A stretch of DNA of 64,000 nucleotides from Hoeflea ulvae (GTDB lineage: Bacteria > Pseudomonadota > Alphaproteobacteria > Rhizobiales > Rhizobiaceae): contig NZ_JAOVZQ010000001.1 of NCBI RefSeq assembly GCF_026619435.1, forward strand, positions 937,501 through 1,001,500, written 5' to 3'. Under the pieces are notes generated by a model. The model ran no database searches, was not told the origin of the DNA, and saw nothing but the letters and a program-made list of their open reading frames with translations. Shown here in pieces: positions 1 to 20,324 of this stretch (position 1 is the stretch's first letter; each line of letters begins with the position of its first letter). The position numbers and the translations under genes are program-made.

Positions 1-611
1 GTCATCGATGCAGTCGACCAGGGCGCCGACACAGCCGGCTGGACCTATACGGTCGCCGACAATGCGCTTGATTTCCTCGCAAACGGCGAGACGCTGATCG
101 TCACCTACGACGTGACGGTTGAAGACGACAGCCTGACCGGCAATGCCGCTTCGGCCACGCGTCAGATCGTCGTCACCATCACCGGCACCAATGACCAGCC
201 GGTGATCGAGACAAGCTCCGTTCTTGCCGATGACATCACCGAGCAGGACGACACCACCGGTGCGTCCACGCCGCTGACGGCCTCCGGCCAGATCGACTTC
301 TCCGACGTCGATGTGACCGACGAGCACTCCACCAGCAAGGATTTCGTCTCGGCCGTGTGGAGCAATGGCGACACCGCGATTGCCGATCCGGGCACGCTGG
401 TCATCGATGCTGTCGACCAGGGCGCCGACACAGCCGGCTGGACCTATACGGTCGCCGACAATGCGCTTGATTTCCTCGCAAACGGCGAGACGCTGATCGT
501 CACCTACGACGTGACGGTTGAAGACGACAGCCTGACCGGCAATGCCGCTTCGGCCACGCGCCAGATCGTCGTCACCATCACCGGCACCAATGACCAGCCG
601 GTGATCGAGAC
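1..611 (+). repeat. 399-bp VCBS-type tandem repeat (two copies, first cut by window edge)
   Basis: Bases 1-212 match 400-611 almost exactly, giving a period of 399 bp (133 residues). The unit encodes a VCBS-like beta-sandwich ending in a TGTNDQPVIE linker. The first copy is incomplete at the window edge, so more copies may lie upstream. Confidence 0.9.
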
Positions 612-3600: not shown

Positions 3601-6600
3601 ATCAGCGGCGGTCCGGACGTGACCAGCATCACCGGCAACGAATTCTACAATGTCATCACCGACATCGCCTTCGGCAATGTCGCCGCCGACATCACCATCG
3701 ATCTGGGCGCAACGGGCAATTTCTCGGTCACCGGCACCGGCAATTCCGACCTGAAGATCACCACCGGCAGCGGCAATGATACGGTCACCGGCACCAGCGG
3801 CGTCGACACCATCCGGGGCAATGGCGGCGACGACACCTTTGTTGCCACCGGCGGCAATGACAGCTTCACCGGCGGCGAGACCGGCGAGACCGCGGGTATC
3901 GGCGATACCGTGGTCTATGCCGGCAACCGCGAGGGCTACGATCTGACGCTGGTCACCGATGCCAATGGCTTTGTCATCGACATCAGCCAGGTCAGGGATA
4001 TCGCGCCGCTTGCCGATGGCGACACCGGCACCGACAGCCTGTCGGAAATCGAGATCCTGTCCTTTGGCGATGCGACCATCAATCTTGCTCACACCGTGCA
4101 GCTGTTTGATGGCGCCGGCGTCCTGATTGCCTCCTTCGAGACCATCCAGGAAGCCGTCGATGCCTCCGCTTTCCGCGGCACCACCGATGATCTCATCCGG
4201 CTTGCGGAAGGAACCTATTCCGATGCTGTGCTCATCGGGCATTCCGTCACCATCGTCGGTCCCAATGATGGCGACCCGGCGTCCCTCGGCCGCACCGGCG
4301 AAGCTGTCATCAGCGGTGAGATCACCGTCAATTCGCTCGCAGCAATCGATGTGGTGCTGGATGGCGTGCGTCTTGAAAAGCCCGCGGGCCAGCCATCCCT
4401 GACTGTCCAGGGAAATGCCAGCGTCAGCGTTGAAAACAGCGTTGTCTACCACCCGAACAACCCCAATGGCGGCGTCGGCATCCAGGTCGACGCGGCGGCA
4501 ACCGGCGCAATCAGGATCGTCGACAATGCCTTTGGCGGTGCCGGCGGCGGCGCGGGCGGCGCGCATTACGGCGTCAACTGGTCCTGGGCCATCCAGTCGG
4601 ATGCAACCGGCCTGGCTGATCTGACCATTGCCGGCAATGACTTTACCAGCGGACATAACGGCATTCATCTTGCGGTCTTCGATGCCGGCAACGCGCCCGA
4701 CAACACTCCGTGGACTGTCTCCGACAACACCTTCTTCAAGGTGGTCAACGCCATCAGGATCGACGCGATTGTCAACGGCCCCGAGCTGACAACACTCGAA
4801 GACAACAGCTTCACCAACGTGCTGACCGAGTTCAACTTCGCCGCGGTTACGACCGACATCGTGTTCAATGCCGGCGGCAATCCGGATGGTGATGGTCAGA
4901 CCAATGTGGCCATCGGCAAGCCGATGAACATTCTTGGCGGCAGCGGCGATGACCAACTGACCGGAACCGCAGGGCGCGACACCATCAGTGGCAATGCCGG
5001 CAATGACGTTCTGTCCGGCGGTGCCGGCGATGACGAGTTGTTCGGCGGTTCCGACGATGACACGCTCACCGGCGGATCGGGCAAGAACCTGCTCGACGGC
5101 GGTGCAGGCACCGACACGGCGGATTACTCCTCCGAGGACGAGGGCACCTATGTGCGCCTCGATGCCGGCTGGAAGACCGATCTTTCGACCAAGCCCCTCT
5201 ACAACTGGGTCGATCTGAACGCTGCGATCGCGGCGAACGCGGTCGATCATGACAAGTTGGTCAGCATCGAGAACGTCACCGGTTCCGACCATGTCGACCT
5301 GATCGTCGGCAATTCGGGCGACAACGTCATTGACGGCGGCGCCGGCAATGACCGGCTGTCCGGCCTGGCCGGCGCAGACACGCTGATTGGCGGCACCGGC
5401 AATGATTTCCTCGATGGCGGCACCGGCGATGACAGATTGTTCGGCGGCACCGACAATGACACGCTCACCGGCGGATCGGGCAAGAACCTGCTCGACGGCG
5501 GTGCAGGCACCGACACGGCGGATTACTCATCCGAGGACGAGGGCACCTATGTGCGCCTCGATGCCGGCTGGAAGACCGATCTTTCGACCAAGCCCCTCTA
5601 CAACTGGGTCGATCTGAACGCGGCGATCGCGGCGAACGCGGTCGATCATGACAAGTTGATCAGTATCGAGAACGTCACCGGTTCCGACCATGTCGACCTG
5701 ATCGTCGGCAATTCGGGCGACAACGTCATTGACGGCGGCGCCGGCAATGACCGGCTGTCCGGCCTGGCCGGCGCAGACACGCTGATTGGCGGTACGGGCA
5801 ATGATTTCCTCGATGGCGGCACCGGCGATGACAGATTGTTCGGCGGCGCCGACAATGACACGCTGGTCGGCGGCACCGGCAGCGACCTGCTCGATGGCGG
5901 CGACGGCATCGACACGGCCAACTACGCTGCCGACAGCGGCGGCGTCTATGTGCAACTGGGTCAGGGCTGGGCCACATCCCGCCTGGTGCAGCAGTCCTAC
6001 GGCACCTTTGCAGCGCTGAAGAATGCGGTCGACAACGATCTGGCCGAACATGACGATCTGGTCAGCATCGAGAACGTGACCGGAACGGCTTACGCCGACA
6101 TCATCAATGGCAGCAGCGGCGACAATGTCCTCAAGGGCGGCGCCGGTGGCGACTGGATCCAGGCCGGAGACGGCAACGACAAGCTCTATGGTGAGGATGG
6201 CAACGACACGCTGGTCGGCGGCACCGGCAGCGACCTGCTCGATGGCGGCGACGGCATCGACACGGCCAACTACGCTGCCGACAGCGGCGGCGTCTATGTG
6301 CAACTGGGTCAGGGCTGGGCCACATCCCGCCTGGTGCAGCAGTCCTACGGCACCTTTGCGGCGCTGAAGAATGCGGTCGACAATGATCTGGCCGAACATA
6401 ACGATCTGGTCAGCATCGAGAACGTGACCGGCACGGCTTACGCCGACATCATCAATGGCAGCAGCGGCGACAATGTCCTCAAGGGCGGCGCCGGTGGCGA
6501 CTGGATCCAGGCAGGTGCGGGCAACGACAAGCTCTATGGCGAAGACGGCAATGACACGCTGGTCGGCGGCACCGGCAGCGATCTGCTCGATGGCGGCGAC

Positions 6601-9600
6601 GGCATCGACACCGCCAACTACGCTGCCGACAGCGGCGGCGTCTATGTGCAACTGGGTCAGGGCTGGGCAACGTCCCGCCTGGTGCAGCAGTCCTACGGCA
6701 CCTTTGCAGCGCTGAAGAATGCGGTCGACAACGATCTGGCCGAACATGACGATCTGGTCAGCATCGAGAACGTGACCGGAACGGCTTACGCCGACATCAT
6801 CAATGGCAGCAGCGGCGACAATGTCCTCAAGGGCGGCGCCGGTGGCGACTGGATCCAGGCCGGAGACGGCAACGACAAGCTCTATGGTGAGGATGGCAAT
6901 GACACGCTGGTCGGCGGCACCGGCAGCGACCTGCTCGATGGCGGCGACGGCATCGACACCGCCAACTACGCTGCCGACAGCGGCGGCGTCTATGTGCAAC
7001 TGGGTCAGGGCTGGGCAACATCCCGCCTGGTGCAGCAGTTCTACGGCACCTTTGCGGCGCTGAAGAATGCGGTCGACAATGATCTGGCCGAACATGACGA
7101 TCTGGTCAGCATCGAGAATGTGACCGGCACGGCCTATGCCGACATCATCAATGGCAGCAGCGGCGACAATGTGCTCAAGGGCGGAGCCGGCGGCGACTGG
7201 ATCCAGGCCGGAGACGGCAATGATGAGCTTCATGGCGAGGACGGCAACGACACGCTGGTCGGCGGCACTGGCGATGACAAATTGTTCGGCGGCGCTGACA
7301 ATGACAGGCTCATGGCAGGGTCGGGCAAGAACCTGGTCGACGGCGGCGCAGGCACCGACACGGCGGATTACTCTTCCGAGGACGAGGGCACCTATGTGCG
7401 TCTCGACGCCGGCTGGAAGACCGATCTTTCGACCAAGCCTCTCTATAACTGGGTCGATCTGAACGCGGCGATCGCGGCGAACGCGGTCGATCATGACAAG
7501 TTGATCAGCGTCGAGAACATCACCGGCTCCGATTATGTCGACCTGATTGTCGGCAATTCCGGCGACAACGTCATTGACGGCGGCGACGGCAATGACCGGC
7601 TGTCCGGCCTGGCCGGCGCCGACATGCTGATTGGCGGTCTGGGCAATGATTTCCTCGAAGGCGGCGCCGGCATCGACAGCGTCCATGGTGGCGCGGGCAA
7701 TGACCGCATCTCCTGGAAAGTGGGAGAAGGCTCCGACACGGTTGATGGCGGTGCGGACGAAGACACTCTCGAACTGGCATCGACGGCAGCGGGCCAGACC
7801 ATCACGCTGAATGCGGTTTCCGGCACTCCGGGTTTCACCGCCACATCCGGCGCCGATACGGTCTCGGTCGAAAATGTCGAAGAGGTCAAGGTCGACTTCA
7901 CGGCCGGCAGCGGAACGCTGAACATCACGGGCGACTTCGCAACCTCCGGCGTCAACACCTCGACCATTGAATTTGAAGGCGGATCGGGCAACGACACGGT
8001 CGACGGCTCAACCATGGTCCACTCGGCGGGCGGATCCGACGTGCGCATTGTTGCCCATGGCAATGACGGCAATGACGAATTGCGCGGCGGCACCGGCAAC
8101 GACCAGCTTTTCGGTGGCGAGGGCAATGATGTTCTCAACGGCGGCGATGGCGACGACTTCCTTTCAGGCGGCGCAGGCAATGATCGCATGGGTGGCGGCG
8201 GCGACGCCGGCAGTGACGTCATCGTCGGCGGAACAGGCAATGACACAATCTATCTGACCAAGGGTGTCGACACGATCTATGGCAATGAACAGGATCTCGG
8301 CACGCCCTCGAATGTTCACGCCGTCGACACTGAAAACGACATTGCGATCATTCAGGGATCAGCATCCGGCTTCTCTGTCACAAGAGGCAGCGATGGCAGC
8401 TGGGTCGTTCAGCAGAACGGCACCACCAACGTGTCGACGCTGTATGGCATCGAAACCATCCAGTATTCCGGCACCGGAGCCGATCTTGACCTGACTGCCG
8501 ATGTGTTCGTGTTCAATACCGCCAATGAACTGGTCGGTACCTACTCGACGATTTCGGCCGGTATCATCGCGGCAGCAACCGGTTACACCGTGGAAGTGCA
8601 TGCCGGCACCTATAATGAGAACCTGACGATCGACAAATCGATCAACCTGGTCTCGACCGATGGCCGCGATGTGACGATCATCGACGGCATCAATGCCGGC
8701 TCCGAGCTCGGAACGATCGAGATCGACCCGAATGTCGACAATGTCACCATCGGCGGAACCGGTCAGGGCTTCACAATCCGCGGGATCAACGGAAATGGCG
8801 CCGTCGAAAAGGCGGCGATCTATCTCCAGGGAGGTCATGACGGCATCGTCATCAAGGGCAACGACATCGTTGCACGCGGCGATTCCGGCATCACGTCGGA
8901 AACTGCTTATGCGGTGACCAACACGCTGATCGATGGCAACATCATCTCTGGGCAGACCTTCGAGGGGACAAATCCGTCCGGAATTGGCTTTGGGACCCAG
9001 TTCGATGTCGGCAACAATGTGCCGCGCCAGCTTGTCGTCATGGGCAATGGCAACAATGCGGCGCCTTCCAGCCACAACATCACCTTCTCCAACAACCAGG
9101 TGACCGGCACGGCCGGTGGTGTCAGCTCGGATGACGGCGTTTCAGCCCAGGGCAATGCGCTCGTCACCATTGATGCGGCGGACTCGTTCATCACCGGCAA
9201 CATTTTCACCGGCTTTACCGATCGCTACGGCGTGGCCGTGCGGGCACGTGGTCCGAATACGGATGTCGAAAACAACACGCTCGATCACACCGGCAACGGC
9301 AACAGCCGTGGCATGGAGATCGTCAACCACGGTGCACCGGGCGCCTATGGCGGCAATGTGTTGACCGGCGGTGCTGATGGCGAACTGATTTACACCATGA
9401 CCCCGGGTTCCGATCTGCTCAATGGCAATGGCGGCAACGACATCCTCAATGGCGGTGGCGGCAACGACATCATCAACGGCGGCGAAGGCGATGACACCAT
9501 CATCGGCGGGACCGGCAATGATGATCTGCATGGCGGTGACGGCACCGACACGGTGGTCTTCACCGGCTCGGTGAGGGACTACAATTTCCAGCATTATCCG

Positions 9601-11031
9601 GGCTTCACGCTGGTCACCGACAGCCGCGTCAACGGCGATGGCCAGACAAAGGTGTTCAAGGATGTCGAAAAGTTCGAGTTCAGCGAAGGCACCTTCACCC
9701 TGGACCGTGGCCACAACGCGGTGGACGCACTCGTTGCTCCGGATGGACAGCGGACCCTGCTGCTCGGCTTCAACAACAACGATGCACTGACAGGCGGCAA
9801 CAGCGATGATGCGCTTGTCGGCGGCAATGGCGTGGATGTGCTCAACGGCGGCGGCGGCAATGATCTGCTTATTGGCGGCGCCGATGATGACAGGCTGATC
9901 GGCGGGACCGGCAATGATGATCTGCATGGCGGTGACGGCACCGACACGGCGGTCTTCACCGGCTCGGTGCGGGACTACAATTTCCAGCATTATCCGGGCT
10001 TCACGCTGGTCACCGACAGCCGCGTCAACGGCGATGGCCAGACCAAGGTGTTCAAGGATGTCGAAAAGTTCGAGTTCAGCGAAGGCACCTTCACCCTGGA
10101 CCGTGGCCACAACGCCGTGGACACACTCGTTGCTCCGGATGGACAACGGACCCTGCTGCTCGGCTTCAACGACAACGATGCACTGACAGGCGGCAACAGC
10201 GATGATGCGCTTGTTGGCGGCAATGGCGTGGATGTGCTCAACGGCGGCGGCGGCAATGATCTGCTTATTGGCGGCGCCGATGATGACAGGCTGATCGGCG
10301 GGACCGGCAATGATGATCTTCATGGCGGTGACGGCACCGACACGGCGGTCTTCACCGGCTCGGTGGGAGATTATAATTTCCAGCACTATGGAAGCTTCAC
10401 GCAGGTCACCGACAGCCGCGTGAATAGCGATGGTCTGACCAAGGTGTTCACGGATGTCGAAAAGTTCGAGTTCAGCGAAGGCACCTTCACCCTGGACCGT
10501 GGCCATAACGCCGTGGACGCACTCGTTGCTCCGGATGGACAACGGACCCTGCTGCTCGGCTTCAACGACGACGATGCACTGACAGGCGGCAACAGCGATG
10601 ATGCGCTTGTCGGCGGCAATGGCGTGGATGTGCTCAACGGCGGCGGCGGAGATGACTCGCTGTTTGGCAGTCTTGGCGAGGACATCCTCAACGGCGGTGC
10701 GGGCTTCGATATCCTGTCCGGTGGCGGCGGGGCTGATACCTTTGTCTTCGATGCCGATGCGCTGGCCGATGTCGATCTGAGCATTCTCGACCTGATCGCC
10801 GACTACAATTTCGATGATGGCGATGTCGTCGATCTGTCGGAGCTTCTCGGCGCGGAGGACGTTCCCGCCGACGGAGCCGGATATGTCCAAATGAACGGCG
10901 ACGTTCTGGAAGTCGATGTCGATGGGTCCGGTCCGGCCGGTTTCGTGCAGATCGCCGAATTCGTTCCGGGCACGGATGCACTGCGCATCCTGGTTGATGA
11001 TGACGCAGCCTCGACACCCGTGATCATCTGA
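1..11031 (+). CDS. Giant RTX/VCBS-repeat secreted protein, 5' end outside window
   Basis: The reading frame is open from base 1, and the first 212 bases repeat again at 400-611, so the start lies upstream. About 3676 residues are visible. Order of domains: VCBS/cadherin-like repeats (residues 1-770) ending in TGTNDQPVI; a lamin-tail domain (about 370-525) inserted in one repeat; RTX nonapeptides (GGXGXDXXX) from about 840; right-handed beta-helix segments at about 1000-1240, 1370-1620 and 2840-3120, each opening with a 'GTY' turn; long blocks of RTX repeats between them; and a serralysin-type C-terminus (GGGGADTFVFDADAL) of the kind used as a type I secretion signal. RTX repeats of this kind fold on calcium outside the cell. 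No ABC exporter, membrane-fusion gene or catalytic motif is visible in the window. A large adhesin or surface/matrix protein is the best guess; a polysaccharide-active enzyme cannot be excluded because of the beta-helices. Confidence 0.93.
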   Translation, partial: VIDAVDQGADTAGWTYTVADNALDFLANGETLIVTYDVTVEDDSLTGNAASATRQIVVTITGTNDQPVIETSSVLADDITEQDDTTGASTPLTASGQIDFSDVDVTDEHSTSKDFVSAVWSNGDTAIADPGTLVIDAVDQGADTAGWTYTVADNALDFLANGETLIVTYDVTVEDDSLTGNAASATRQIVVTITGTNDQPVIETIVADGSLTEVAGTGTGTAELSDSGTITISDVDDTDEVTISYISNNDMVWSGGVTGAVTDDQLSATQIQNLVDGFELNDRSALAIDDVTNTVSSGWTYSTSEDLNFLAAGETLKFSYDVTATDDSTRPNAASAVRTVTITITGTNDQPVIDTITTGAALTEDAFGGELSTPRINEIHYDNTGTDAGEFIEIRVAAGEDVSGMLIELYTGAPTMRSVYASTSVAGLTKTSDGTFDYYVWEHAGIQNGSPDGLALSDSGTVIEFISYEGSFTAANGTAAGLVSTDIGVRETGSTPLGASLQRVGDALTEWVRSTSETPGAANESDGILSALGTITISDLDDTDEVTLSETSNNDLVWSGGTITDAELDATQIQNLINGFVLDDDLTALAIDDATNTVSSGWSYSTSEDLNFLAAGETLTFSYQVIATDNSTSLDAASAARTVTITITGTNDDPVISGGPVLVEFNEAVDVAGAASKGDLTGGSFIGSLAFNDVDVTDIPKISLLSVTASGKTGTHTTAEFEALMSLLGSVSSTGTTTGGSINWSFNAGSTNDDFFDYLKTGEFVEIAYVVQVDDEKGGVAQETITVRVNGADDVLFTTSGETVDLRILTAADAQDENYLNALGGRDVVYLPDSDDVLASEYGPGNVFNAGGGRDTVYGGNMNDTVRGGGGRDLIYGGAGDDDLGGNANADELHGGTGDDKLSGGAGADRLFGDEDNDELTGGRGSDLLDGGTGTDTAVYNRAVTPDMVTFVDDADAATAGNQVGWTVTTGSREGTDGLIEIEIIQHADGNILLVGNGGFDSLQAAVDAARDGDIIMIAPGTYVGDTNVDKAVTILGPNAGIAGNGTRSGEAVIEGQITVSAAAGKVVIDGIEVSNTSDRATEFDGVTVTGGADVTVQNSVFASTSGEKANNDQAIYLASTATGAITIDGNDFGGIIHGHYNESWNPAIQSAAPGTHLSITNNSFTSVGAAIKLVAYDDATGSISGNVMTTVAYGLQIDAISGGPDVTSITGNEFYNVITDIAFGNVAADITIDLGATGNFSVTGTGNSDLKITTGSGNDTVTGTSGVDTIRGNGGDDTFVATGGNDSFTGGETGETAGIGDTVVYAGNREGYDLTLVTDANGFVIDISQVRDIAPLADGDTGTDSLSEIEILSFGDATINLAHTVQLFDGAGVLIASFETIQEAVDASAFRGTTDDLIRLAEGTYSDAVLIGHSVTIVGPNDGDPASLGRTGEAVISGEITVNSLAAIDVVLDGVRLEKPAGQPSLTVQGNASVSVENSVVYHPNNPNGGVGIQVDAAATGAIRIVDNAFGGAGGGAGGAHYGVNWSWAIQSDATGLADLTIAGNDFTSGHNGIHLAVFDAGNAPDNTPWTVSDNTFFKVVNAIRIDAIVNGPELTTLEDNSFTNVLTEFNFAAVTTDIVFNAGGNPDGDGQTNVAIGKPMNILGGSGDDQLTGTAGRDTISGNAGNDVLSGGAGDDELFGGSDDDTLTGGSGKNLLDGGAGTDTADYSSEDEGTYVRLDAGWKTDLSTKPLYNWVDLNAAIAANAVDHDKLVSIENVTGSDHVDLIVGNSGDNVIDGGAGNDRLSGLAGADTLIGGTGNDFLDGGTGDDRLFGGTDNDTLTGGSGKNLLDGGAGTDTADYSSEDEGTYVRLDAGWKTDLSTKPLYNWVDLNAAIAANAVDHDKLISIENVTGSDHVDLIVGNSGDNVIDGGAGNDRLSGLAGADTLIGGTGNDFLDGGTGDDRLFGGADNDTLVGGTGSDLLDGGDGIDTANYAADSGGVYVQLGQGWATSRLVQQSYGTFAALKNAVDNDLAEHDDLVSIENVTGTAYADIINGSSGDNVLKGGAGGDWIQAGDGNDKLYGEDGNDTLVGGTGSDLLDGGDGIDTANYAADSGGVYVQLGQGWATSRLVQQSYGTFAALKNAVDNDLAEHNDLVSIENVTGTAYADIINGSSGDNVLKGGAGGDWIQAGAGNDKLYGEDGNDTLVGGTGSDLLDGGDGIDTANYAADSGGVYVQLGQGWATSRLVQQSYGTFAALKNAVDNDLAEHDDLVSIENVTGTAYADIINGSSGDNVLKGGAGGDWIQAGDGNDKLYGEDGNDTLVGGTGSDLLDGGDGIDTANYAADSGGVYVQLGQGWATSRLVQQFYGTFAALKNAVDNDLAEHDDLVSIENVTGTAYADIINGSSGDNVLKGGAGGDWIQAGDGNDELHGEDGNDTLVGGTGDDKLFGGADNDRLMAGSGKNLVDGGAGTDTADYSSEDEGTYVRLDAGWKTDLSTKPLYNWVDLNAAIAANAVDHDKLISVENITGSDYVDLIVGNSGDNVIDGGDGNDRLSGLAGADMLIGGLGNDFLEGGAGIDSVHGGAGNDRISWKVGEGSDTVDGGADEDTLELASTAAGQTITLNAVSGTPGFTATSGADTVSVENVEEVKVDFTAGSGTLNITGDFATSGVNTSTIEFEGGSGNDTVDGSTMVHSAGGSDVRIVAHGNDGNDELRGGTGNDQLFGGEGNDVLNGGDGDDFLSGGAGNDRMGGGGDAGSDVIVGGTGNDTIYLTKGVDTIYGNEQDLGTPSNVHAVDTENDIAIIQGSASGFSVTRGSDGSWVVQQNGTTNVSTLYGIETIQYSGTGADLDLTADVFVFNTANELVGTYSTISAGIIAAATGYTVEVHAGTYNENLTIDKSINLVSTDGRDVTIIDGINAGSELGTIEIDPNVDNVTIGGTGQGFTIRGINGNGAVEKAAIYLQGGHDGIVIKGNDIVARGDSGITSETAYAVTNTLIDGNIISGQTFEGTNPSGIGFGTQFDVGNNVPRQLVVMGNGNNAAPSSHNITFSNNQVTGTAGGVSSDDGVSAQGNALVTIDAADSFITGNIFTGFTDRYGVAVRARGPNTDVENNTLDHTGNGNSRGMEIVNHGAPGAYGGNVLTGGADGELIYTMTPGSDLLNGNGGNDILNGGGGNDIINGGEGDDTIIGGTGNDDLHGGDGTDTVVFTGSVRDYNFQHYPGFTLVTDSRVNGDGQTKVFKDVEKFEFSEGTFTLDRGHNAVDALVAPDGQRTLLLGFNNNDALTGGNSDDALVGGNGVDVLNGGGGNDLLIGGADDDRLIGGTGNDDLHGGDGTDTAVFTGSVRDYNFQHYPGFTLVTDSRVNGDGQTKVFKDVEKFEFSEGTFTLDRGHNAVDTLVAPDGQRTLLLGFNDNDALTGGNSDDALVGGNGVDVLNGGGGNDLLIGGADDDRLIGGTGNDDLHGGDGTDTAVFTGSVGDYNFQHYGSFTQVTDSRVNSDGLTKVFTDVEKFEFSEGTFTLDRGHNAVDALVAPDGQRTLLLGFNDDDALTGGNSDDALVGGNGVDVLNGGGGDDSLFGSLGEDILNGGAGFDILSGGGGADTFVFDADALADVDLSILDLIADYNFDDGDVVDLSELLGAEDVPADGAGYVQMNGDVLEVDVDGSGPAGFVQIAEFVPGTDALRILVDDDAASTPVII
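5061..5859 (+). repeat. 399-bp RTX tandem repeat, two copies, with a diverged third at about 7305
   Basis: Two adjacent 399-bp units start at 5061 and 5460 and are nearly identical. Each encodes an RTX hairpin plus a spacer starting GTDTADYSSEDEGTYVRL. A third, more diverged copy starts near 7305, on the far side of the 348-bp repeat block, which suggests that block expanded inside this older repeat array. Confidence 0.88.
5863..7254 (+). repeat. 348-bp RTX tandem repeat, four copies
   Basis: Four head-to-tail units of exactly 348 bp begin at 5863, 6211, 6559 and 6907. Each encodes 116 residues: an RTX turn, then a spacer starting GIDTANYAADSGGVYVQLGQ. The copies differ mostly at single, often synonymous, bases. 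Such low divergence indicates recent duplication or continuing gene conversion, and the array is prone to copy-number change or assembly collapse. Confidence 0.93.
9502..10689 (+). repeat. 396-bp RTX tandem repeat, three copies
   Basis: Three 396-bp units begin at 9502, 9898 and 10294 (132 residues each). Each contains DLHGGDGTDT, a 'DYNFQHY' strand and a KVF-DVEKFEFSEGTF segment before the RTX turns. The third copy is the most diverged, in its 5' part and in the last 40-50 bases, where it runs into the C-terminal secretion domain. Confidence 0.9.
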
Positions 11032-12456: not shown

Positions 12457-13205
12457 ATGAACACACCGGTCGAGGCCTTCATCATTCATCTGGCGCGTGC
12501 TGACGCACGGCGGCCACAGGTCGATCGCCTGCTCGCAGCCTGCCCGGTGCCGGCGGGCATTGTCGATGCGGTGGACGGCCGCGACATGTCGGGCGCGGAA
12601 ATCGACGCGGTCTATTCATCCGCCCCCTGCATGCCCCGCGCTATCCGTTCCGGTTGAGCGCCGGCGAGGTCGGCTGTTTTCTCAGCCATCGCAAGGCCTG
12701 GCAGGCCATTGCCGATGCAGGCCTCGAGGCCGGCCTGGTGATCGAGGACGATGTCGAGATCGACACCGCCACCTTCGCCCCGGCGCTGGAACTGGCGCAG
12801 GCCTATATCGCCACCCATGGCATCATCCAGTTTCAGGTCCGCGACATTGCCAGGCCGGGAGCGGTCGTGGCGTCGGCCGGCAATGTCCGGTTGACCCGAC
12901 CGGTGCAGATCCCGCTGCGAGCCTCCTGCACGCTCTATTCGCGGTCCGCCGCACACCAGTTGCTCGCGCAGACCGCGCGTTTTGACCGCCCCGTCGACAC
13001 CTATATGCAGATGCACTGGCTCACCGGCCTGCGCGCCTGCCTGGTCCTGCCTTCCGGTGTCAGCGACAAGGGCAGCGAGATTGGCGGCACCACCATCCAG
13101 GCCCGCAACCTTGCGCTGCCCCAACGCCTCCGCCGCGAGATCCTGCGCCCGCTCTACCGCGCCCGCATCGCCGCACTTTCGCGGGTTCATGCCGGTCCGG
13201 CTTGA
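12457..13205 (+). pseudogene. Glycosyltransferase family 25 (LOS-type), one-base frameshift
   Basis: The N-terminal part starts at ATG 12457 (VEAFIIHLARADARRPQVDR, typical GT25) and hits a stop at 12655-12657. The rest of the protein continues in another frame with RYPFRLSAGEVGCFLSHRKA, then the GT25 acidic motif VIEDDVEI. Adding one C to the CCCCC run at 12623-12627 joins the two into a normal 249-residue protein reading SSAPLHAPRYPFRL. So the gene is either inactivated by a one-base deletion, switched by slippage, or carries a sequencing error. GT25 enzymes transfer sugars, often galactose, to lipooligosaccharide or surface glycans, which fits the sugar genes downstream. Confidence 0.85.
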
Positions 13206-13298: not shown

Positions 13299-14162
13299 AT
13301 GACCCGCGTGATCTCGCGCCTGCATGGCGGACTTGGCAATCAGCTGTTTCAATATGCCGTTGGCCGCGCTGTAGCTCTGCGCACCGGCGCCGAGTTGCTG
13401 CTCGACACCCGCCACTACACAGCCGAAAATCCGTTCAAATATGATTTGGAACACTTTGCCATTCAGGCCCGGGTGGCCAGTAATGATGAATTGCCGCCGG
13501 CAAAGAACCGGCCGCTCAGCTATGCCTGGTGGCGCAAGTTCGGCCGTTCGCCGCGCTTTGTCCGCGAGCAGGGCCTGGGCTACAACGAGCGGATCGCTTC
13601 AATCGATGCCGATTGCTATCTGCACGGCTATTTTCAGTCCCAGCGTTACTTTGACGACATCGCCCCAACGCTGTGGAACGATCTGAGCTTCAGGGAACCG
13701 ATCAGCGGCGAAAATGCCCGCATGAGCGAGCGCATCCAGAGCGGGCCGTCGGTTTCCCTGCACATTCGCCGCGGCGATTACATCACCAATGCCAAGGCAC
13801 AGGCGGCCCATGGCTCGACCGACCTGGCCTATTACCAGCAGGCGCTCGAAGAGGTCAGGACGCGCTCGGGGCAGGATCCGGTGGTCTATCTGTTTTCCAA
13901 TGATCCCGATTGGGTGCGCGACAATATCAAGCTCGATGCCGAACTGGTGCCCGTCGCCATCAATGACGGCGCAACCGCGCACGAAGATCTGCGGCTGATG
14001 AGCCTGTGTGATCACAACATCATCGCCAACTCCACCTTCTCCTGGTGGGGCGCCTGGCTCAACCCGTCGCACAACAAGATCGTGGCAGCACCAGTGCAAT
14101 GGTTCGCTGACCCGAAACTCTCCAATCCCGATATCACCCCGCCGGGATGGCTCAGGCTGTAG
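13299..14162 (+). CDS. Glycosyltransferase family 11 (alpha-1,2-fucosyl/colitosyltransferase-like)
   Basis: A 287-residue protein starting VISRLHGGLGNQLFQYA, the classic N-terminus of GT11 alpha-1,2-fucosyltransferases, with the nucleotide-sugar-binding motif HIRRGDY at residues 155-161 and the C-terminal 'NSTFSWWGAWL' motif. ATG 13299 is chosen because GGAAG lies 7-8 bases upstream; ATG 13293 is too close to that site. GT11 enzymes use GDP-L-fucose or similar GDP-6-deoxy sugars. It ends 6 bases from the convergent ColD-like gene, beside genes that make such donors, so the likely substrate is the product of that cluster. If that product is GDP-colitose, this would be a colitosyltransferase (inference). 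Confidence 0.85.
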   Translation: MTRVISRLHGGLGNQLFQYAVGRAVALRTGAELLLDTRHYTAENPFKYDLEHFAIQARVASNDELPPAKNRPLSYAWWRKFGRSPRFVREQGLGYNERIASIDADCYLHGYFQSQRYFDDIAPTLWNDLSFREPISGENARMSERIQSGPSVSLHIRRGDYITNAKAQAAHGSTDLAYYQQALEEVRTRSGQDPVVYLFSNDPDWVRDNIKLDAELVPVAINDGATAHEDLRLMSLCDHNIIANSTFSWWGAWLNPSHNKIVAAPVQWFADPKLSNPDITPPGWLRL

Positions 14163-14168
14163 ATCCGT

Positions 14169-15353
14169 TTACGCGAAAGCGGCCTTGAGCGCCGCGGCCA
14201 GTTGCTGCATCGGCGCATCAAGCGGGTAGTGATGGTTGCCGATGAACAGGCCGTGTGTGTCGGCCAGTTCGGCATTCTTGAGCCCGCCGTGGATTTCATG
14301 ATCCATGTAACGCGTCACCACCTCGTTCTTGGCAAAATTGCCGGCCACGATCGGCCGCGCCTCGATGCCGTGGCTGAAAAGACAGGCGACAAGCTCCTTG
14401 CGGGCCACGCCGCACTCGGGATCGATGATCATCGAAAAACCGAACCAGCTGCTTTCGCCGGTCTCGCGCTGGGTGCGGATCTGCGGGAAGTCAGCCATCA
14501 CCTGCTTGAACAGGACGGCGTTCGTGCGGCGGTTTTCCACGATCATCGGCAGCTTGGCCATCTGCTCGATACCGATGGCGCCGCTCATTTCCAGCGGTCG
14601 CAGATTGTAACCGGGCAGCACGAAGCGGAAGGCCTCCTCGAAGGGATCATCGCCCTTGGCGCCGGTAACGTGGTTCGGGTTGGGCAGGTTGCGGGTCCAG
14701 CCATGCGCCCGGAGGCTGAGCATGATGTGATAGAGCTCCTCGTCATGGGTGACGGTGACGCCGCCTTCCATGGTCGAGATATGGTGCGAGAAGAACGCCG
14801 AATAGCTGCCTGCCAGGCCGAAGGTGCCTGCCTGCTGGCCGTTATAGGTCGCGCCGAGGGATTCGCAATTGTCCTCGAGCAGCACGATGTCGCGGCCGCC
14901 GATGATCGCCTTGATGCGATCGAACGCGTTCGGATTGCCAAGCAGGTTGACCGCCAGAATGGCCTTCGTCTTGTCCGTGATGGCCGCTTCGAGCTGGCCA
15001 AGATCGAAGTTCAGTGTGTCGAGATCGATGTCGACAAATTTGAGCCGCAGGCCATATTGATAGAGCGGATAATAGGTGGTGCTCCACGACACTGCCGGCA
15101 CGATCACCTCGTCGCCGGGCGCGAGCGTGTGGCGCGAGTGATAGCGTAGGGCTGCCACGAACAGCAGATTGGCCGAGGAGCCGGAATTCGACATCACTGC
15201 ATAGGGCGCGCCGATCTGGTCCGCGAACAGTTTCTCGAAAGCGGCGACTTCCTTGCCCATCGAAAAGAAGCCGGATTTCACCACGCGGTCGATCGCCGCA
15301 TATTCCTTCTCGTCCCAGGAGCTGGTGGCCAGCGGAAAGGCTTTGTCTGTCAC
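14169..15353 (-). CDS. colD: ColD-like GDP-4-keto-6-deoxy-mannose 3-dehydratase (DegT/AHBA fold)
   Basis: A 394-residue DegT/DnrJ/EryC1 family protein. The PLP-lysine motif of ordinary sugar aminotransferases is replaced: the segment reads FFSHHISTMEGG, placing His190 where the Schiff-base Lys belongs. His at this site is the mark of ColD and the E1-type 3-dehydrases, which remove the C3 hydroxyl of 4-keto sugars. The pyridine-binding acid (LLEDNCES, Asp161) and the N-terminal 'NSGSSANLL' are kept. The start is GTG 15353, overlapping the stop of the fcl-like gene by 4 bases, so the two are translationally coupled. With gmd and an epimerase/reductase upstream, the set matches GDP-colitose (3,6-dideoxy-L-galactose) synthesis. 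Perosamine synthase is the alternative name by overall similarity but is contradicted by the missing lysine. Confidence 0.82.
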   Translation of the reverse strand: MTDKAFPLATSSWDEKEYAAIDRVVKSGFFSMGKEVAAFEKLFADQIGAPYAVMSNSGSSANLLFVAALRYHSRHTLAPGDEVIVPAVSWSTTYYPLYQYGLRLKFVDIDLDTLNFDLGQLEAAITDKTKAILAVNLLGNPNAFDRIKAIIGGRDIVLLEDNCESLGATYNGQQAGTFGLAGSYSAFFSHHISTMEGGVTVTHDEELYHIMLSLRAHGWTRNLPNPNHVTGAKGDDPFEEAFRFVLPGYNLRPLEMSGAIGIEQMAKLPMIVENRRTNAVLFKQVMADFPQIRTQRETGESSWFGFSMIIDPECGVARKELVACLFSHGIEARPIVAGNFAKNEVVTRYMDHEIHGGLKNAELADTHGLFIGNHHYPLDAPMQQLAAALKAAFA

Positions 15354-16291
15354 GGGTGATTCTCCTCAGCCGCTGCCGGGAGCGCGCGGAAATGGGCGTA
15401 GGTTTTTGCAATCGCATCATCGAGCGAGGTCGACGGCAGCCAGCCGAACTCACGCTGCATGGCAACCGAGACAAGCTTCTGCTTCATGCCGACCGGCTTG
15501 CTCAGATCATGGGTGAAGCTGCCCTGCCATCCGATTACCCGGGCCACGGCGGCATAGTAATCATTGATCGAGTGATCATGACCGACGCCCATGTTCATCA
15601 TGCCGGGCAGATCGTCGAACCGCTCGACCGCGGTCCAGATGCCGTCGGCGAGGTCGGAGGCGAACATGAATTCGCGCCGCGCCTCGCCGCTGCCCCAGAT
15701 CTCGACGCTCTCCGCACCGGTGCGCGCGGCCTCGTCAACCTTGCGGATGATGGCGGGCAGGAGATGGGAAACTGCGGGATCGAACTTGTCGTGAATGCCG
15801 AAAATATTGCACGGGATCAGCGTCTTGTAGTCAAGCCCGGGGTTTGACAGGCTGACATAATCGCACAGCCGCGCCGTCATCACCTTTGCCAGCGCATAGC
15901 CCTCATTGGTGGGTTCGAGCTCACCGGTCAGCACCATGCTCTCTTCCAGCGGATTGGGGGCTGCGCGCGGATACATGCAGGAGCTGCCGATATTGATGAG
16001 TTTCGGCGTCCCCGACGCGCGCGCGGCCATGACGATGTTGCGCCCCATGTCGAGATTTTCGACCAGGAACTCGACCGGATGCGCCATGTTGGCCTGGATG
16101 CCGCCGACCCGGCCCGCAGCATGAATGATCAAGTCCGGCTTGACCCGCGCGATATAGGCTTCGGTCGCCGGTCCGTCGGTGAGATCGAGCTCGCGGCTGC
16201 GCGGCGCGATCAGCTCGTGTTGGCTGGCCGTCGCGTGGTCGCGGATATTGCGCCCCACCATGCCGTTGCCGCCTGTCAGCACTATCTTCAT
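15350..16291 (-). CDS. fcl: GDP-L-fucose synthase / ColC-like epimerase-reductase
   Basis: A 313-residue extended SDR starting MKIVLTGGNGMVG (NADP-binding GxxGxxG at residues 7-13). Catalytic residues line up with E. coli Fcl: Ser103/Ser104 and Cys105 in SSCMYP, Tyr132 and Lys136 in YALAK, and His176 in the SHLLPA segment, so both the epimerase acid/base pair and the reductase triad are present. The start at 16291 is preferred over an upstream ATG (16387) because the Rossmann motif begins right there. In fucose synthesis the enzyme converts GDP-4-keto-6-deoxy-mannose to GDP-L-fucose; the homologous ColC does the matching step for colitose. Sequence alone does not separate the two, but the ColD-like neighbour favours ColC. 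Confidence 0.9.
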   Translation of the reverse strand: MKIVLTGGNGMVGRNIRDHATASQHELIAPRSRELDLTDGPATEAYIARVKPDLIIHAAGRVGGIQANMAHPVEFLVENLDMGRNIVMAARASGTPKLINIGSSCMYPRAAPNPLEESMVLTGELEPTNEGYALAKVMTARLCDYVSLSNPGLDYKTLIPCNIFGIHDKFDPAVSHLLPAIIRKVDEAARTGAESVEIWGSGEARREFMFASDLADGIWTAVERFDDLPGMMNMGVGHDHSINDYYAAVARVIGWQGSFTHDLSKPVGMKQKLVSVAMQREFGWLPSTSLDDAIAKTYAHFRALPAAAEENHP

Positions 16292-16322
16292 CGAAGCCTG
16301 TCTCCCTGCCGCCGGCAAGCCG

Positions 16323-17381
16323 TCACTTTCCGTCCCGCGTCGCTTCGGCGAGGTCGGATTGAGCCATTTCGGCGACCAGATCGGCAAACGAGGTCTGCGG
16401 CGTCCATCCGAGCTTCTGCTTGGCCTTGGAAGCGTCGCCCAGCAGCGTCTCGACTTCGGTCGGGCGGAAGTAGCGTGGATCGACCTTGACGATCACCTTG
16501 CCGGATGGATCGCGGCCGACTTCGTCGACGCCTTCGCCTTCGAAATGGATCACCATGCCAAGCGCGTCCGCGGCCGCGAGCACGAAGTCGCGCACCGAAT
16601 ATTGCACGCCGGTGGCGATGACGAAATCATCCGGGGCGTCCTGCTGCAGCATCAGCCACTGCATCTCGACATAGTCGCGCGCATGGCCCCAGTCGCGCAG
16701 TGCATTGAGATTGCCAAGCCGGAGGTCTTCCTGCATGCCAAGCTTGATGCGGGCCAGCGCGCGGGTGATCTTGCGGGTGACGAAGGTCTCGCCGCGCAGC
16801 GGGCTTTCGTGATTGAACAGGATTCCGTTGCAGGCATAGAGCCCGTAGGCCTCGCGGTAGTTGATGGTGATCCAGTAGGCGTAAAGCTTGGCCACGGCAT
16901 AGGGCGAACGCGGATAGAACGGAGTGCGCTCCGTCTGCGGGGTTTCCTGGACCAGGCCGTAAAGCTCCGAGGTCGAGGCCTGGTAGAACTTGCTCTTGTC
17001 TTTCAGGCCGAGGATGCGGATGGCTTCGAGCAGGCGAAGCGTGCCGAGCGCATCGGAATTGGCGGTGTATTCCGGCTCTTCGAACGACACCGCGACATGG
17101 CTCTGGGCCGCAAGATTGTAAACCTCGTCCGGCTTGGTCTGCTGCAGGACATGGGTGAGCGACGAGGAATCGGTCATGTCGCCATGGTGCAGCACGAACT
17201 GGCCCGAGCGGCCATATTCACCCTCGAAGAGATGATCGATGCGCGCGGTGTTGAACAGCGAGGTCCGCCGCTTGATGCCGTGCACCTCGTAGCCCTTTTT
17301 GAGCAGGAACTCGGACAGATAGGCGCCGTCCTGTCCGGTGACGCCGGTGATCAGGGCGGTCTTGCGCGAAGTCTCGGTCAT
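16323..17381 (-). CDS. gmd: GDP-mannose 4,6-dehydratase
   Basis: A 352-residue extended SDR, normal length for Gmd. It shows [15 protein letters not shown] (NADP site), [15 protein letters not shown] (NADP phosphate/tetramer segment typical of Gmd) and [15 protein letters not shown] with the Tyr-x3-Lys pair. It makes GDP-4-keto-6-deoxy-D-mannose, the shared precursor of GDP-fucose, GDP-colitose and GDP-perosamine. It is the first gene of a minus-strand operon gmd, fcl-like, ColD-like, with 31 bases to the next gene. No manA/manC gene for GDP-mannose supply is in the window. Confidence 0.96.
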
Positions 17382-17754: not shown

Positions 17755-18801
17755 ATGCAATTGAAGACACGACATTGGGACCGGATCGGCAATGGTGGGC
17801 TGACGTTTACCGAACTGGGCTTTGGCACGGCACCTCTGGGCAATCTGTACCGGGCGATCACTGATGATGATGCCCATGCGGTTCTGAGCAGGGCATGGGA
17901 TCTGGGCGTGCGCTATTTCGACACCGCGCCGCTCTATGGGCTGGGGCTCTCGGAGACCCGACTCAACCGGTTCCTGCGCGGCAAGCCGCGCGGCGACTAT
18001 GTGCTGTCGACCAAGATCGGGCGGCTGATGCGGCGCTGCGAGCCGGGCGAGGAGCGCACCGGCGAGGGCAAGTTCTTCGATGTGCCGGCGCGCTGCGAAG
18101 TCTACGATTACAGCTATGACGGCGTGATGCGGTCGCTCGAATTCTCGTTCGAACGGCTCGGCGTCGACAGCATCGATATTCTTTACGCCCACGACCTTGA
18201 TGTGTTCACCCATGGCAGCGAGGCAGCGCGCGACGCCCGGCTGGCGGAGCTGATGGCGGGCGGCTACAAGGCGCTTTTGTCGTTGCGCGAGCAGGGCGTG
18301 ATCAAGGCCTTTGGCGCCGGCCTGAATGAATGGCAGGCCTGCCAATGGCTGACCGAACGCGGCGATTTCGACCTGTTCCTGCTGGCCGGGCGCTACACGC
18401 TCCTGGAGCAGGAGGCGCTCGACAGTTTCCTGCCGCTGGCCGAGCAACGCGGCATCGGCATAGTCATCGGCGGCCCCTACAATTCGGGCATTCTGGCCAC
18501 CGGGCCGAAGCCGGGCGCATTCTACAATTACGACATCGCGTCGCAGCCCATCCTTGACCGGGTGACGAAGATCGAGGCCGTCTGCCAAAGCCACGGCGTG
18601 CGAATGGTGGATGCTGCCTTCCAGTTCCCGCTCAGGCATTCTGCCATCGTCTCGGTCATTCCCGGCGGCCAGGGCGTTGCCGAGATGGAAGCCAATTGTG
18701 TTGCCGCAAGGGCCGAGATTCCGCCGGCGCTGTGGGCGGAGCTGAAGGCGCAAGGCCTGATGCGCGAAGACGCACCTGTTGGAGACCTGTCCGCATCATG
18801 A
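17755..18801 (+). CDS. Aldo/keto reductase, L-fucose/D-threo-aldose dehydrogenase-like
   Basis: A 348-residue AKR-fold protein: ELGFGTAPLGNLYR, then the catalytic Asp/Tyr segment YFDTAPLYGLGLSE, a Lys in STKIGR, and DILYAHDLD in place of the usual HDPD-type motif. These features match bacterial L-fucose / D-threo-aldose 1-dehydrogenases and pyridoxal 4-dehydrogenase relatives, which oxidise aldoses at C1 with NAD(P). It overlaps the start of the UxaA-family gene by 4 bases (ATGA), so the pair is an operon, consistent with sugar to lactone/aldonate to dehydrated acid. Lactonase, kinase and aldolase genes are not in view, so the substrate remains open; fucose or a related 6-deoxy sugar is a reasonable guess given the neighbours. 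Confidence 0.82.
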   Translation: MQLKTRHWDRIGNGGLTFTELGFGTAPLGNLYRAITDDDAHAVLSRAWDLGVRYFDTAPLYGLGLSETRLNRFLRGKPRGDYVLSTKIGRLMRRCEPGEERTGEGKFFDVPARCEVYDYSYDGVMRSLEFSFERLGVDSIDILYAHDLDVFTHGSEAARDARLAELMAGGYKALLSLREQGVIKAFGAGLNEWQACQWLTERGDFDLFLLAGRYTLLEQEALDSFLPLAEQRGIGIVIGGPYNSGILATGPKPGAFYNYDIASQPILDRVTKIEAVCQSHGVRMVDAAFQFPLRHSAIVSVIPGGQGVAEMEANCVAARAEIPPALWAELKAQGLMREDAPVGDLSAS

Positions 18802-20324
18802 CAACCGATTTCAACCAGACCATTCGCCTCAATCCGCAAGACAATGTCATCATCGCCCTGAAAGACCTGGCGCCGGGTGCTGCCGTGCCGGGCCTCGATG
18901 TGCCGCTCTTGGACGGCGTGGCGCGCGGCCACAAGATCGCCTCGCGCCCGATTGCCGAGGGCGAGAAAGTCATCCGCTACGGCCAGACCATCGGTGTGGC
19001 CACCTGCGCCATTGCGCCCGGCGCGCATGTGCATGTCCACAATCTCGGCATGGGCGGCCATGCCGAGGCGCAGGAATTTTCCACCGAAGTCCGGCCGCTT
19101 CCCGCGCCTTCCGAGAAGCGCCATTTCATGGGCTATCACCGCGCCGATGGCGGCGTCGGCACCCGCAATTATCTCGGCATTCTCACCTCGGTGAATTGTT
19201 CGGGATCGGTGGCCCGCTTCATTGCCGAGGCATCCGAGAAGCAGGGCTGGCTCGACGCGTTCGAAAATGTCGACGGCATCGTGCCGATCGTGCATGGCAC
19301 CGGCTGCGGCATGTCGGGCAAGGACGAGGGCTACGACACCCTGTTCCGCACCCTGCAGGGCTATGCCCGCAATCCCAATTTCGGCGGCATCCTGTTGCTC
19401 GGGCTCGGCTGCGAGGTCATGCAGGTGCCGGATCTGGTCGGCCGCGGCCGCATGCGCGCCGATGGCAATATCCGCTACATGACCATCCAGCAGTCCGGCG
19501 GCACCCGCAAGACCATCGAACGCGGAATCGAGCAGCTCAAGGAAATGGCGCAAGTCGCCAACAGCATCACCCGTGCGCCGGCCGGGCTCGAGCATCTGAT
19601 GATCGGCATGCAGTGCGGCGGCTCGGATGGCTATTCCGGCATCACTGCCAACCCGGCGCTCGGCGCGGCGTCCGATATGCTGGTCGCCCATGGCGGCACC
19701 ACCATCCTGTCGGAGACCTCGGAAATCTACGGCGCCGAGCATCTGCTGACCCGCCGTGCAGTGACACCCGAGGTTGGCGCCAAGATCGTCGAGCGGATCC
19801 ACTGGTGGGAGGACTATGCCGCGCGCAATGGCGGCGAGATGGACAACAATCCCTCGCCCGGCAACAAGAAGGGCGGGCTGACCACCATTTTGGAAAAATC
19901 GCTGGGCGCCGTGGCCAAGGGCGGCACCGCGCCGCTGACCCAGGTCTACAAATTTGCCGAGCCGATCCCCGAGCGCGGCTTCGTGTTCATGGATTCTCCG
20001 GGCTATGATCCCTGTTCGGTGACCGGGCAGATTGCCTCGGGCGCCAATCTGATCGCGTTTACCACCGGCCGCGGCTCGGTCTCTGGCTACAAGCCGACGC
20101 CCTGCATCAAGCTGGCGACAAATTCTGAAATGTATGGCCGCATGTCCGAAGACATGGACGTCAATTGCGGCGACATCATCACTGACGGCGTCAGCCTCGA
20201 GGCCAAGGGCCGCGAGATTTTCGAGCTGTTCCTGCGCGTCGCCTCCGGCGAGGAAACCAAGAGCGAGCAACTCGGCTTCGGCGGCGCCGAATTCGTCCCC
20301 TGGCAAATGGGCGCGGTGATGTAG
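18798..20324 (+). CDS. UxaA-family (altronate dehydratase-type) sugar acid dehydratase
   Basis: A 508-residue protein with an N-terminal SAF-like domain (VIIALKDLAPGAAVPG) and the long UxaA/GarD domain: GVGTRNYLGILTSVNCSG, IVHGTGCGMSGKDEGYD, and FMDSPGYDPCSVTGQIASG near the C-terminus. The start at 18798 overlaps the upstream stop as ATGA; the longer upstream frame lies inside the AKR gene. UxaA enzymes are iron-dependent and convert D-altronate to 2-keto-3-deoxy-gluconate; related members act on galactarate, sulfolactate and other sugar acids. Coupling with the aldose dehydrogenase suggests it dehydrates the aldonate that enzyme forms. The name 'altronate dehydratase' should be read as the family, not the proven substrate. 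Confidence 0.86.
   Translation: MTTDFNQTIRLNPQDNVIIALKDLAPGAAVPGLDVPLLDGVARGHKIASRPIAEGEKVIRYGQTIGVATCAIAPGAHVHVHNLGMGGHAEAQEFSTEVRPLPAPSEKRHFMGYHRADGGVGTRNYLGILTSVNCSGSVARFIAEASEKQGWLDAFENVDGIVPIVHGTGCGMSGKDEGYDTLFRTLQGYARNPNFGGILLLGLGCEVMQVPDLVGRGRMRADGNIRYMTIQQSGGTRKTIERGIEQLKEMAQVANSITRAPAGLEHLMIGMQCGGSDGYSGITANPALGAASDMLVAHGGTTILSETSEIYGAEHLLTRRAVTPEVGAKIVERIHWWEDYAARNGGEMDNNPSPGNKKGGLTTILEKSLGAVAKGGTAPLTQVYKFAEPIPERGFVFMDSPGYDPCSVTGQIASGANLIAFTTGRGSVSGYKPTPCIKLATNSEMYGRMSEDMDVNCGDIITDGVSLEAKGREIFELFLRVASGEETKSEQLGFGGAEFVPWQMGAVM

What the first reader, a model, noticed from the sequence alone, without database searches (positions are those of the whole stretch)
14169..17381. GDP-sugar operon with a His-for-Lys ColD-like enzyme: probable GDP-colitose pathway
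The DegT-fold protein (14169-15353) has His190 where transaminating relatives keep the PLP-binding Lys. That change is the known mark of 3-dehydrases such as ColD. With gmd and a Fcl/ColC homologue that keeps both epimerase residues (Cys105, His176), the three enzymes match the route from GDP-mannose to GDP-colitose (3,6-dideoxy-L-galactose). Colitose is well known from enteric and marine gamma-proteobacterial O antigens; its presence in a rhizobial-type bacterium would be notable. An annotation pipeline would probably call this an aminotransferase.
Basis: partly seen in the sequence, partly recalled or inferred. Interest (0 to 1): 0.72.

Follow-up and report, generated by a model that had tools for sequence, protein, structure and literature searches.

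The report
GDP-colitose gene cassette in Hoeflea
A marine relative of rhizobia carries the three genes that turn GDP-mannose into GDP-colitose, a rare surface sugar best known from some E. coli and Vibrio; the reading is sound, but the same cassette is found in many related bacteria, so it is a correctly spotted known pathway.

Summary
On the minus strand, gmd (16323-17381), colC (15350-16291) and colD (14169-15353) form a tight, probable operon. ColD is 62% identical to E. coli ColD, with Ser189-His190 where the crystal structures have the mutated Ser187/His188; five of five aligned DegT paralogues of the same genome keep Lys. The Cys105/His176 argument does not separate ColC from fucose synthase, because both share these residues. 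Tests added here do: in a 97-row tree the window protein lies in the ColC clade with E. coli O55/O111 ColC, apart from Fcl (SH-aLRT 100), and it has the ColC letter at 11 of 11 columns that divide the clades. GDP-colitose is the best-supported product. A GT11 glycosyltransferase, the family of the O55 colitosyltransferase, lies next to colD and is the probable user. The host is Hoeflea-like. Rarity does not hold: 77 of 80 named loci fetched have gmd-colC-colD in a row, including Agrobacterium, Rhizobium, Mesorhizobium and roseobacters. NCBI annotation calls ColD an aminotransferase, as predicted; JGI names some of them CDP-sugar 3-dehydrases. New member of a known kind.

The parts
16323..17381 (-). 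gmd, GDP-mannose 4,6-dehydratase, first gene of the probable operon
   Evidence: NCBIfam TIGR01472 565 bits against a cut-off of 415; the only match in the genome at E<=1e-20
15350..16291 (-). colC, GDP-L-colitose synthase type epimerase/reductase
   Evidence: Below the Fcl equivalog cut-off (290 of 500 bits); ColC clade, SH-aLRT 100; 11 of 11 ColC/Fcl-dividing columns are ColC-type; Ser103, Cys105, Tyr132, Lys136, His176 present; the only match in the genome at E<=1e-10
14169..15353 (-). colD, GDP-4-keto-6-deoxymannose 3-dehydratase (PMP-dependent)
   Evidence: 62% identity to E. coli ColD, 528 bits to 2GMS; Ser189-His190-His191
13299..14162 (+). GT11 glycosyltransferase, convergent with colD; probable alpha-1,2-colitosyltransferase (start inferred from the L100 homologue)
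   Evidence: PF01531 123.9 bits; 34% identity to the GT11 protein of the E. coli O55 cluster; the only PF01531 match in the genome
12457..13205 (+). GT25-type glycosyltransferase, split between two frames here (12457-12657 and 12654-13205)
   Evidence: PF01755 42.7 bits in the second piece, none in the first; a single ORF in Hoeflea relatives L098, L099, L100

Best explanation
The operon makes GDP-L-colitose (GDP-3,6-dideoxy-L-galactose). Gmd converts GDP-mannose to GDP-4-keto-6-deoxymannose. ColD, with pyridoxamine phosphate and no Schiff-base lysine, uses His190 as base to expel the C3 hydroxyl; the intermediate is hydrolysed to GDP-4-keto-3,6-dideoxymannose without an iron-sulfur partner. 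ColC epimerises C5 and reduces C4 to give GDP-colitose. The neighbouring GT11 enzyme most likely transfers colitose, alpha-1,2 to galactose, onto a surface glycan. Shown by sequence: identity, order and active-site residues of the three enzymes. Inferred: the reactions, the product, the colitosyl transfer and the place of the sugar.
For: ColD: 528 bits to 2GMS against 188 for the CDP-sugar E1 and 119 for perosamine synthetase; 62% identity to E. coli ColD; Ser-His in 88 of 88 rows of the ColD group (three of these rows are the window's own locus). ColC: clade with E. coli O55 and O111 ColC, SH-aLRT 100, 97 rows; ColC letter at 11 of 11 dividing columns. Gmd: above its equivalog cut-off. Linkage: gmd-colC-colD in a row on one strand in 77 of 80 named loci, colC (or in L020 an Fcl-type gene) just before colD in 79 of 80. 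GDP-mannose supply: a mannose-1-phosphate guanylyltransferase domain fused to an N-acylglucosamine 2-epimerase domain at C1:599774 and phosphomannomutase-type genes. No second Gmd- or Fcl-type match in the genome at the limits used. The cysteine-rich stretch of E1 in the alignment has no counterpart here; E1 and SpnQ, not ColD, carry a [2Fe-2S] cluster bound by four cysteines (passages of PMC8987622).
Against: No enzyme or sugar was measured. One of 80 loci (L020, Litoreibacter MAG) pairs a ColD with an Fcl-type enzyme. Three of 80 lack the plain order: L022 begins at colC, L053 has no Gmd hit in the 4.9 kb held upstream, and L094 has gmd and colC on the other strand. The scan used SHHI[SA]TME as one of two patterns and kept the 80 best, so conservation of His190 and similarity among these hits are partly built in. 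The 11 dividing columns come from the same alignment as the tree, window included. The clade has moderate support (85) and very long outgroup branches. The GT25 neighbour is frame-shifted in this assembly.
Confidence: 0.91

Rival explanations
1. The cassette mainly makes GDP-L-fucose: ColC works as a fucose synthase on the Gmd product and ColD is minor or inactive.
For: ColC and Fcl share the catalytic Ser, Cys, Tyr, Lys and His; the O55 GT11 colitosyltransferase also uses GDP-fucose well (PMC12723683 passages).
Against: ColC branch separate from Fcl (SH-aLRT 100), 11 of 11 dividing columns ColC-type; colD overlaps colC by 4 bp and its checked active-site positions are those of ColD.
Confidence: 0.05
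2. The DegT protein is an aminotransferase making GDP-perosamine.
For: Pfam and NCBI names call it a DegT-family aminotransferase.
Against: Lys replaced by His; far closer to ColD than to perosamine synthetase (528 against 119 bits). That turning ColD into a transaminase needed changes at both Ser187 and His188 is recalled; chain 3gr9 carries both changes and 2r0t only the second. The window has the dehydratase residue at both.
Confidence: 0.01
3. GDP-4-keto-3,6-dideoxymannose is reduced without C5 epimerisation, giving a GDP-3,6-dideoxy-D-sugar.
For: Product stereochemistry cannot be read from sequence.
Against: Cys105 and His176, the epimerase pair (role recalled from Fcl), are kept and the protein groups with E. 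coli ColC.
Confidence: 0.03

Closest known systems
E. coli O55 and O111 colitose genes (colC-colD in the O-antigen clusters)
   Same: Homologous ColD (60-61% by tblastn) and ColC (49-53%), 4-bp colC/colD overlap; O55 also has a GT11 gene
   Different: In E. coli the genes lie in an O-antigen cluster with wzx and wzy; here none of the 16 proteins scanned between 11167 and 29325 matched a flippase or polymerase family, and the cassette lies between a giant RTX-like ORF and sugar-catabolism and DNA-repair genes
gmd-colC-colD cassettes of Roseovarius, Agrobacterium, Methylophilus and others
   Same: Same three genes; order gmd-colC-colD in 77 of 80 loci
   Different: Flanking glycosyltransferases vary; GT11 over 100 bits in 31 of 80 loci
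RfbH / E1 (CDP-6-deoxy-hexulose 3-dehydratase)
   Same: PMP-dependent 3-dehydratase with His for Lys
   Different: CDP pathway, iron-sulfur cluster and reductase partner (PMC8987622 passages); only 188 bits, and below the NCBIfam RfbH cut-off (247 of 423)

Membership tests
ColD (GDP-4-keto-6-deoxymannose 3-dehydratase) | His in place of the PLP lysine, preceded by Ser | tested here: met
   Ser189-His190 aligned gaplessly to ColD
ColD (GDP-4-keto-6-deoxymannose 3-dehydratase) | Closer to characterised ColD than to any other DegT-fold enzyme of known structure | tested here: met
   528 bits to 2GMS, next enzyme 188 bits
ColD (GDP-4-keto-6-deoxymannose 3-dehydratase) | Release of GDP-4-keto-3,6-dideoxymannose in vitro | not testable with these tools
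   needs enzyme assay
ColC (GDP-L-colitose synthase) | Epimerase Cys and His, reductase Ser/Tyr/Lys | tested here: met
   Ser103, Cys105, Tyr132, Lys136, His176; shared with Fcl, so not diagnostic
ColC (GDP-L-colitose synthase) | Groups with E. coli ColC rather than Fcl | tested here: met
   SH-aLRT 100; 11 of 11 dividing columns
Fcl (GDP-L-fucose synthase) | Reaches the NCBIfam equivalog cut-off | tested here: not met
   290 of 500 bits
Gmd (GDP-mannose 4,6-dehydratase) | Reaches the TIGR01472 equivalog cut-off | tested here: met
   565 bits, cut-off 415
RfbH / E1 | Reaches the NCBIfam RfbH cut-off | tested here: not met
   247 bits, cut-off 423
GT11 alpha-1,2-colitosyltransferase (WbgN type) | GT11 family | tested here: met
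   PF01531, as for the O55 GT11 protein
GT11 alpha-1,2-colitosyltransferase (WbgN type) | Transfer from GDP-colitose | not testable with these tools
   donor use cannot be read from 34% identity

The most novel reading that the evidence does not exclude
This marine Hoeflea, and relatives with GT25 (overlapped by galE in L098 and L099) and GT11 beside the cassette, cap a surface glycan with colitose alpha-1,2-linked to galactose, a 3-deoxy version of the blood-group H motif like that of E. coli O55, made by a stand-alone cassette rather than within an O-antigen polymerase cluster.
Probability: 0.35. Interest if true: 0.4.

Novelty: new member of a known kind. Interest (0 to 1): 0.24.

Why it matters
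It shows a gap in annotation: no NCBIfam model above its cut-off names ColD or ColC here, and RefSeq records the pair as aminotransferase plus fucose-synthase-family protein even in E. coli O55. A usable rule results: a ColD with Ser-His plus a ColC-type (not Fcl-type) partner, with 11 dividing columns, would flag GDP-colitose in genomes. If the rule holds, colitose is made by far more marine and soil Proteobacteria than the handful of sources named in the papers looked at here.

Tried and rejected
Aminotransferase and E1 readings were rejected on scores and residues. The Cys/His argument for ColC was dropped as non-diagnostic and replaced by the tree and dividing columns. A link between the cassette and the giant RTX-like ORF beside it was considered; its last 900 residues matched only 2 of the 86 loci examined (L070, L077), none of them Hoeflea, so it is not counted as part of the system. 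A census of 240 alphaproteobacterial genomes drawn from the class gave 19 matches at E<=1e-100, of which only 2 exceed 60% identity: this genome and G214, whose match has a stop inside. The other 17 are 46-51% identical; 12 of these 17 were fetched and fall in a separate clade, so must not be read as 19 colitose makers. Structure prediction was not run: 62% identity to a solved structure left little to learn. A PDB search with GT11 gave no match at E<=0.001.

Literature: colitose with Alphaproteobacteria (3 papers), Hoeflea (0), rhizob- at word start (2), rhizobi anywhere (2) and Agrobacterium (1). No listed title reports colitose in a rhizobial bacterium. I looked into passages of PMC3210612, PMC7725333 and PMC4052302 only; PMC3354558, PMC8614823 and PMC12731072 were seen as listings. 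One search asked for any two of six words and was too broad to inform. PMC7725333 (sections 19 and 24 and passages) surveys 55 monosaccharide pathways in genomes and says L-colitose is absent from the TACK group; its phylum figure and supplement were not available to me, so a prior in-silico prediction for Alphaproteobacteria may exist there.

Full report
What is there. The window lies at C1:937501-1001500 of a 5.12-Mb, two-contig genome. The closest named protein matches of ColD are from Hoeflea (91%; one unnamed JGI protein is 94%), so the host is Hoeflea-like. On the minus strand, gmd (16323-17381), colC (15350-16291) and colD (14169-15353) follow each other with a 31-bp gap and a 4-bp overlap. 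On the plus strand, pointing at colD, are a GT25-type gene and a GT11 glycosyltransferase that ends at 14162.

ColD. The protein aligns without gaps over residues 6-385 to E. coli ColD; the chains 3B8X, 2R0T and 3GR9 differ from 2GMS at the residue that aligns with His190. That this is His188 of the literature is recalled; K188/H188 of ColD appears in passages of PMC8987622. Identity to E. coli ColD is 62%. Of the 16 DegT-profile matches in the genome, one is colD; the five next best loci were aligned and all five have Lys at this column. No NCBIfam model named the protein above its cut-off. NCBI names call the relatives DegT-family aminotransferases, JGI names some of them CDP-sugar 3-dehydrases.

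ColC. I therefore built a tree of 97 proteins: 86 from loci with ColD (the window and E. coli O55 and O111 included) and 11 Fcl rows without it (E. coli K-12 and ten plasmid-borne alphaproteobacterial genes). Left out before it: repeat copies of the same locus, sequences under 240 residues and matches under 150 bits. The two clades are split by a long branch with SH-aLRT 100; 85 ColD-linked rows, the window among them, fall on one side, and all 11 Fcl rows plus one ColD-linked row (L020) on the other. With L020 counted as Fcl, eleven columns divide the clades at 90% or more in each, and the window has the ColC letter at all eleven; these columns come from the same data, window included, so they are not independent of the tree. 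Identities to the window are 48.5-88% for ColC-type and 36-40% for Fcl-type rows.

Supply and exclusivity. The genome has one Gmd match (E<=1e-20), one Fcl/ColC match (E<=1e-10) and one GT11 match (E<=0.001). A mannose-1-phosphate guanylyltransferase domain fused to an N-acylglucosamine 2-epimerase domain lies at C1:599774 (341.5 bits, below the GMP_PMI cut-off of 372.95), with a phosphomannomutase-type gene nearby that is split between two frames in this assembly, and two further members of that family elsewhere.

Distribution. Of the 61 loci with full 9-kb flanks, 61 have all three. Among the 80 are Hoeflea (3), Agrobacterium (4), Rhizobium (2), Gellertiella (1) and Mesorhizobium (1), many roseobacters and Betaproteobacteria, some Gammaproteobacteria and Bdellovibrionota (titles). 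Of 17 other genomes of the same genus, 5 carry ColD at 88-92% identity and 12 have no match; of 18 others of the same family or 24 of the same order in that call, one (G018, 64%) has a match above 60%. In E. coli, 86 of 5,426 genomes match a Photobacterium colD gene. In 240 genomes spread over the class, 2 have ColD above 60%. The cassette is thus patchy but far from unique among rhizobial bacteria.

Use of the sugar. GT11 homologues over 100 bits lie within the fetched flanks of 31 of 80 loci (27 of 61 full ones), and GT25 homologues in 10 of 80, all 10 of which also have GT11. How often GT11 lies near genes without ColD was not measured, so this is no enrichment test. WbgN of E. coli O55 is an alpha-1,2-colitosyltransferase that also accepts GDP-fucose and prefers Gal-beta-1,3-GlcNAc acceptors (passages of PMC12723683); the GT11 protein of the O55 cluster, which I take to be WbgN from memory, is 34% identical to the window's. 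In Hoeflea relatives L098 and L099 a galE gene (427 and 430 bits, TIGR01179 cut-off 262) overlaps GT25 by 4 bp. Together this suggests, without proving it, a colitose-alpha-1,2-galactose cap. None of the 16 proteins scanned between 11167 and 29325 belongs to a flippase or polymerase family.

Judgement. The pathway assignment is strong for sequence evidence; the surprise is small, since the enzymes, their order and their spread are of a known kind. What remains of interest is the annotation gap, the ColC/Fcl rule, and a neighbouring clade of ColD-like proteins with another gene context (see Noticed in passing).

Noticed in passing
L122-L133 and L119 (alphaproteobacterial genomes; Azospirillum lipoferum plasmid): A separate clade of ColD-like proteins (45-52% identity, Ser-His-His in 14 of 14 rows, SH-aLRT 92) lies near genes for a dehydrogenase E1 alpha, a transketolase-type subunit and an SDR enzyme in 11 of 12 loci fetched out of 17 (not L132, nor Azospirillum argentinense L120). 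None of the 12 has the gmd-colC-colD cassette, though 4 have an Fcl-type gene and 2 a weak Gmd match. A C4-branched 3,6-dideoxy sugar such as a yersiniose-like octose is a possible product; yersiniose of Gram-negatives is said to use the single enzyme YerE (PMC4753412 passages).
   Followed up: partly
window 12457-13205: The GT25 gene is split between two frames here but is one ORF in L098, L099 and L100. A phosphomannomutase-type gene (C1:602088-602470) and a DegT gene (C1:439515-440619) of the same genome are also matched in two frames, so assembly errors are as likely as real breaks.
   Followed up: partly
L020:266-2522: A Litoreibacter MAG has a ColD 73% identical to the window's but an Fcl-type, not ColC-type, gene before it: a natural swap, or an Fcl that accepts the 3-deoxy substrate.
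   Followed up: no
L100:2630-6208: In a Hoeflea isolate (YR204, same contig as L017) a second sugar set lies near GT25: nucleotidyltransferase, NDP-sugar dehydratase family, 3,5-epimerase and C-methyltransferase, suggesting a C-methylated sugar in the same glycan.
   Followed up: no
window 112-11031: A giant ORF of at least 3,639 aa with long near-identical repeats and glycine-aspartate-rich RTX-like units next to the cassette.
   Followed up: no
window 17755-20324: Aldo/keto reductase and galactarate/altronate-dehydratase-family genes beside gmd, a possible pair for L-fucose or related sugar catabolism; the second gene is matched near the cassette in four Hoeflea relatives, partly in one of them (L097, L098, L099, L101).
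   Followed up: no
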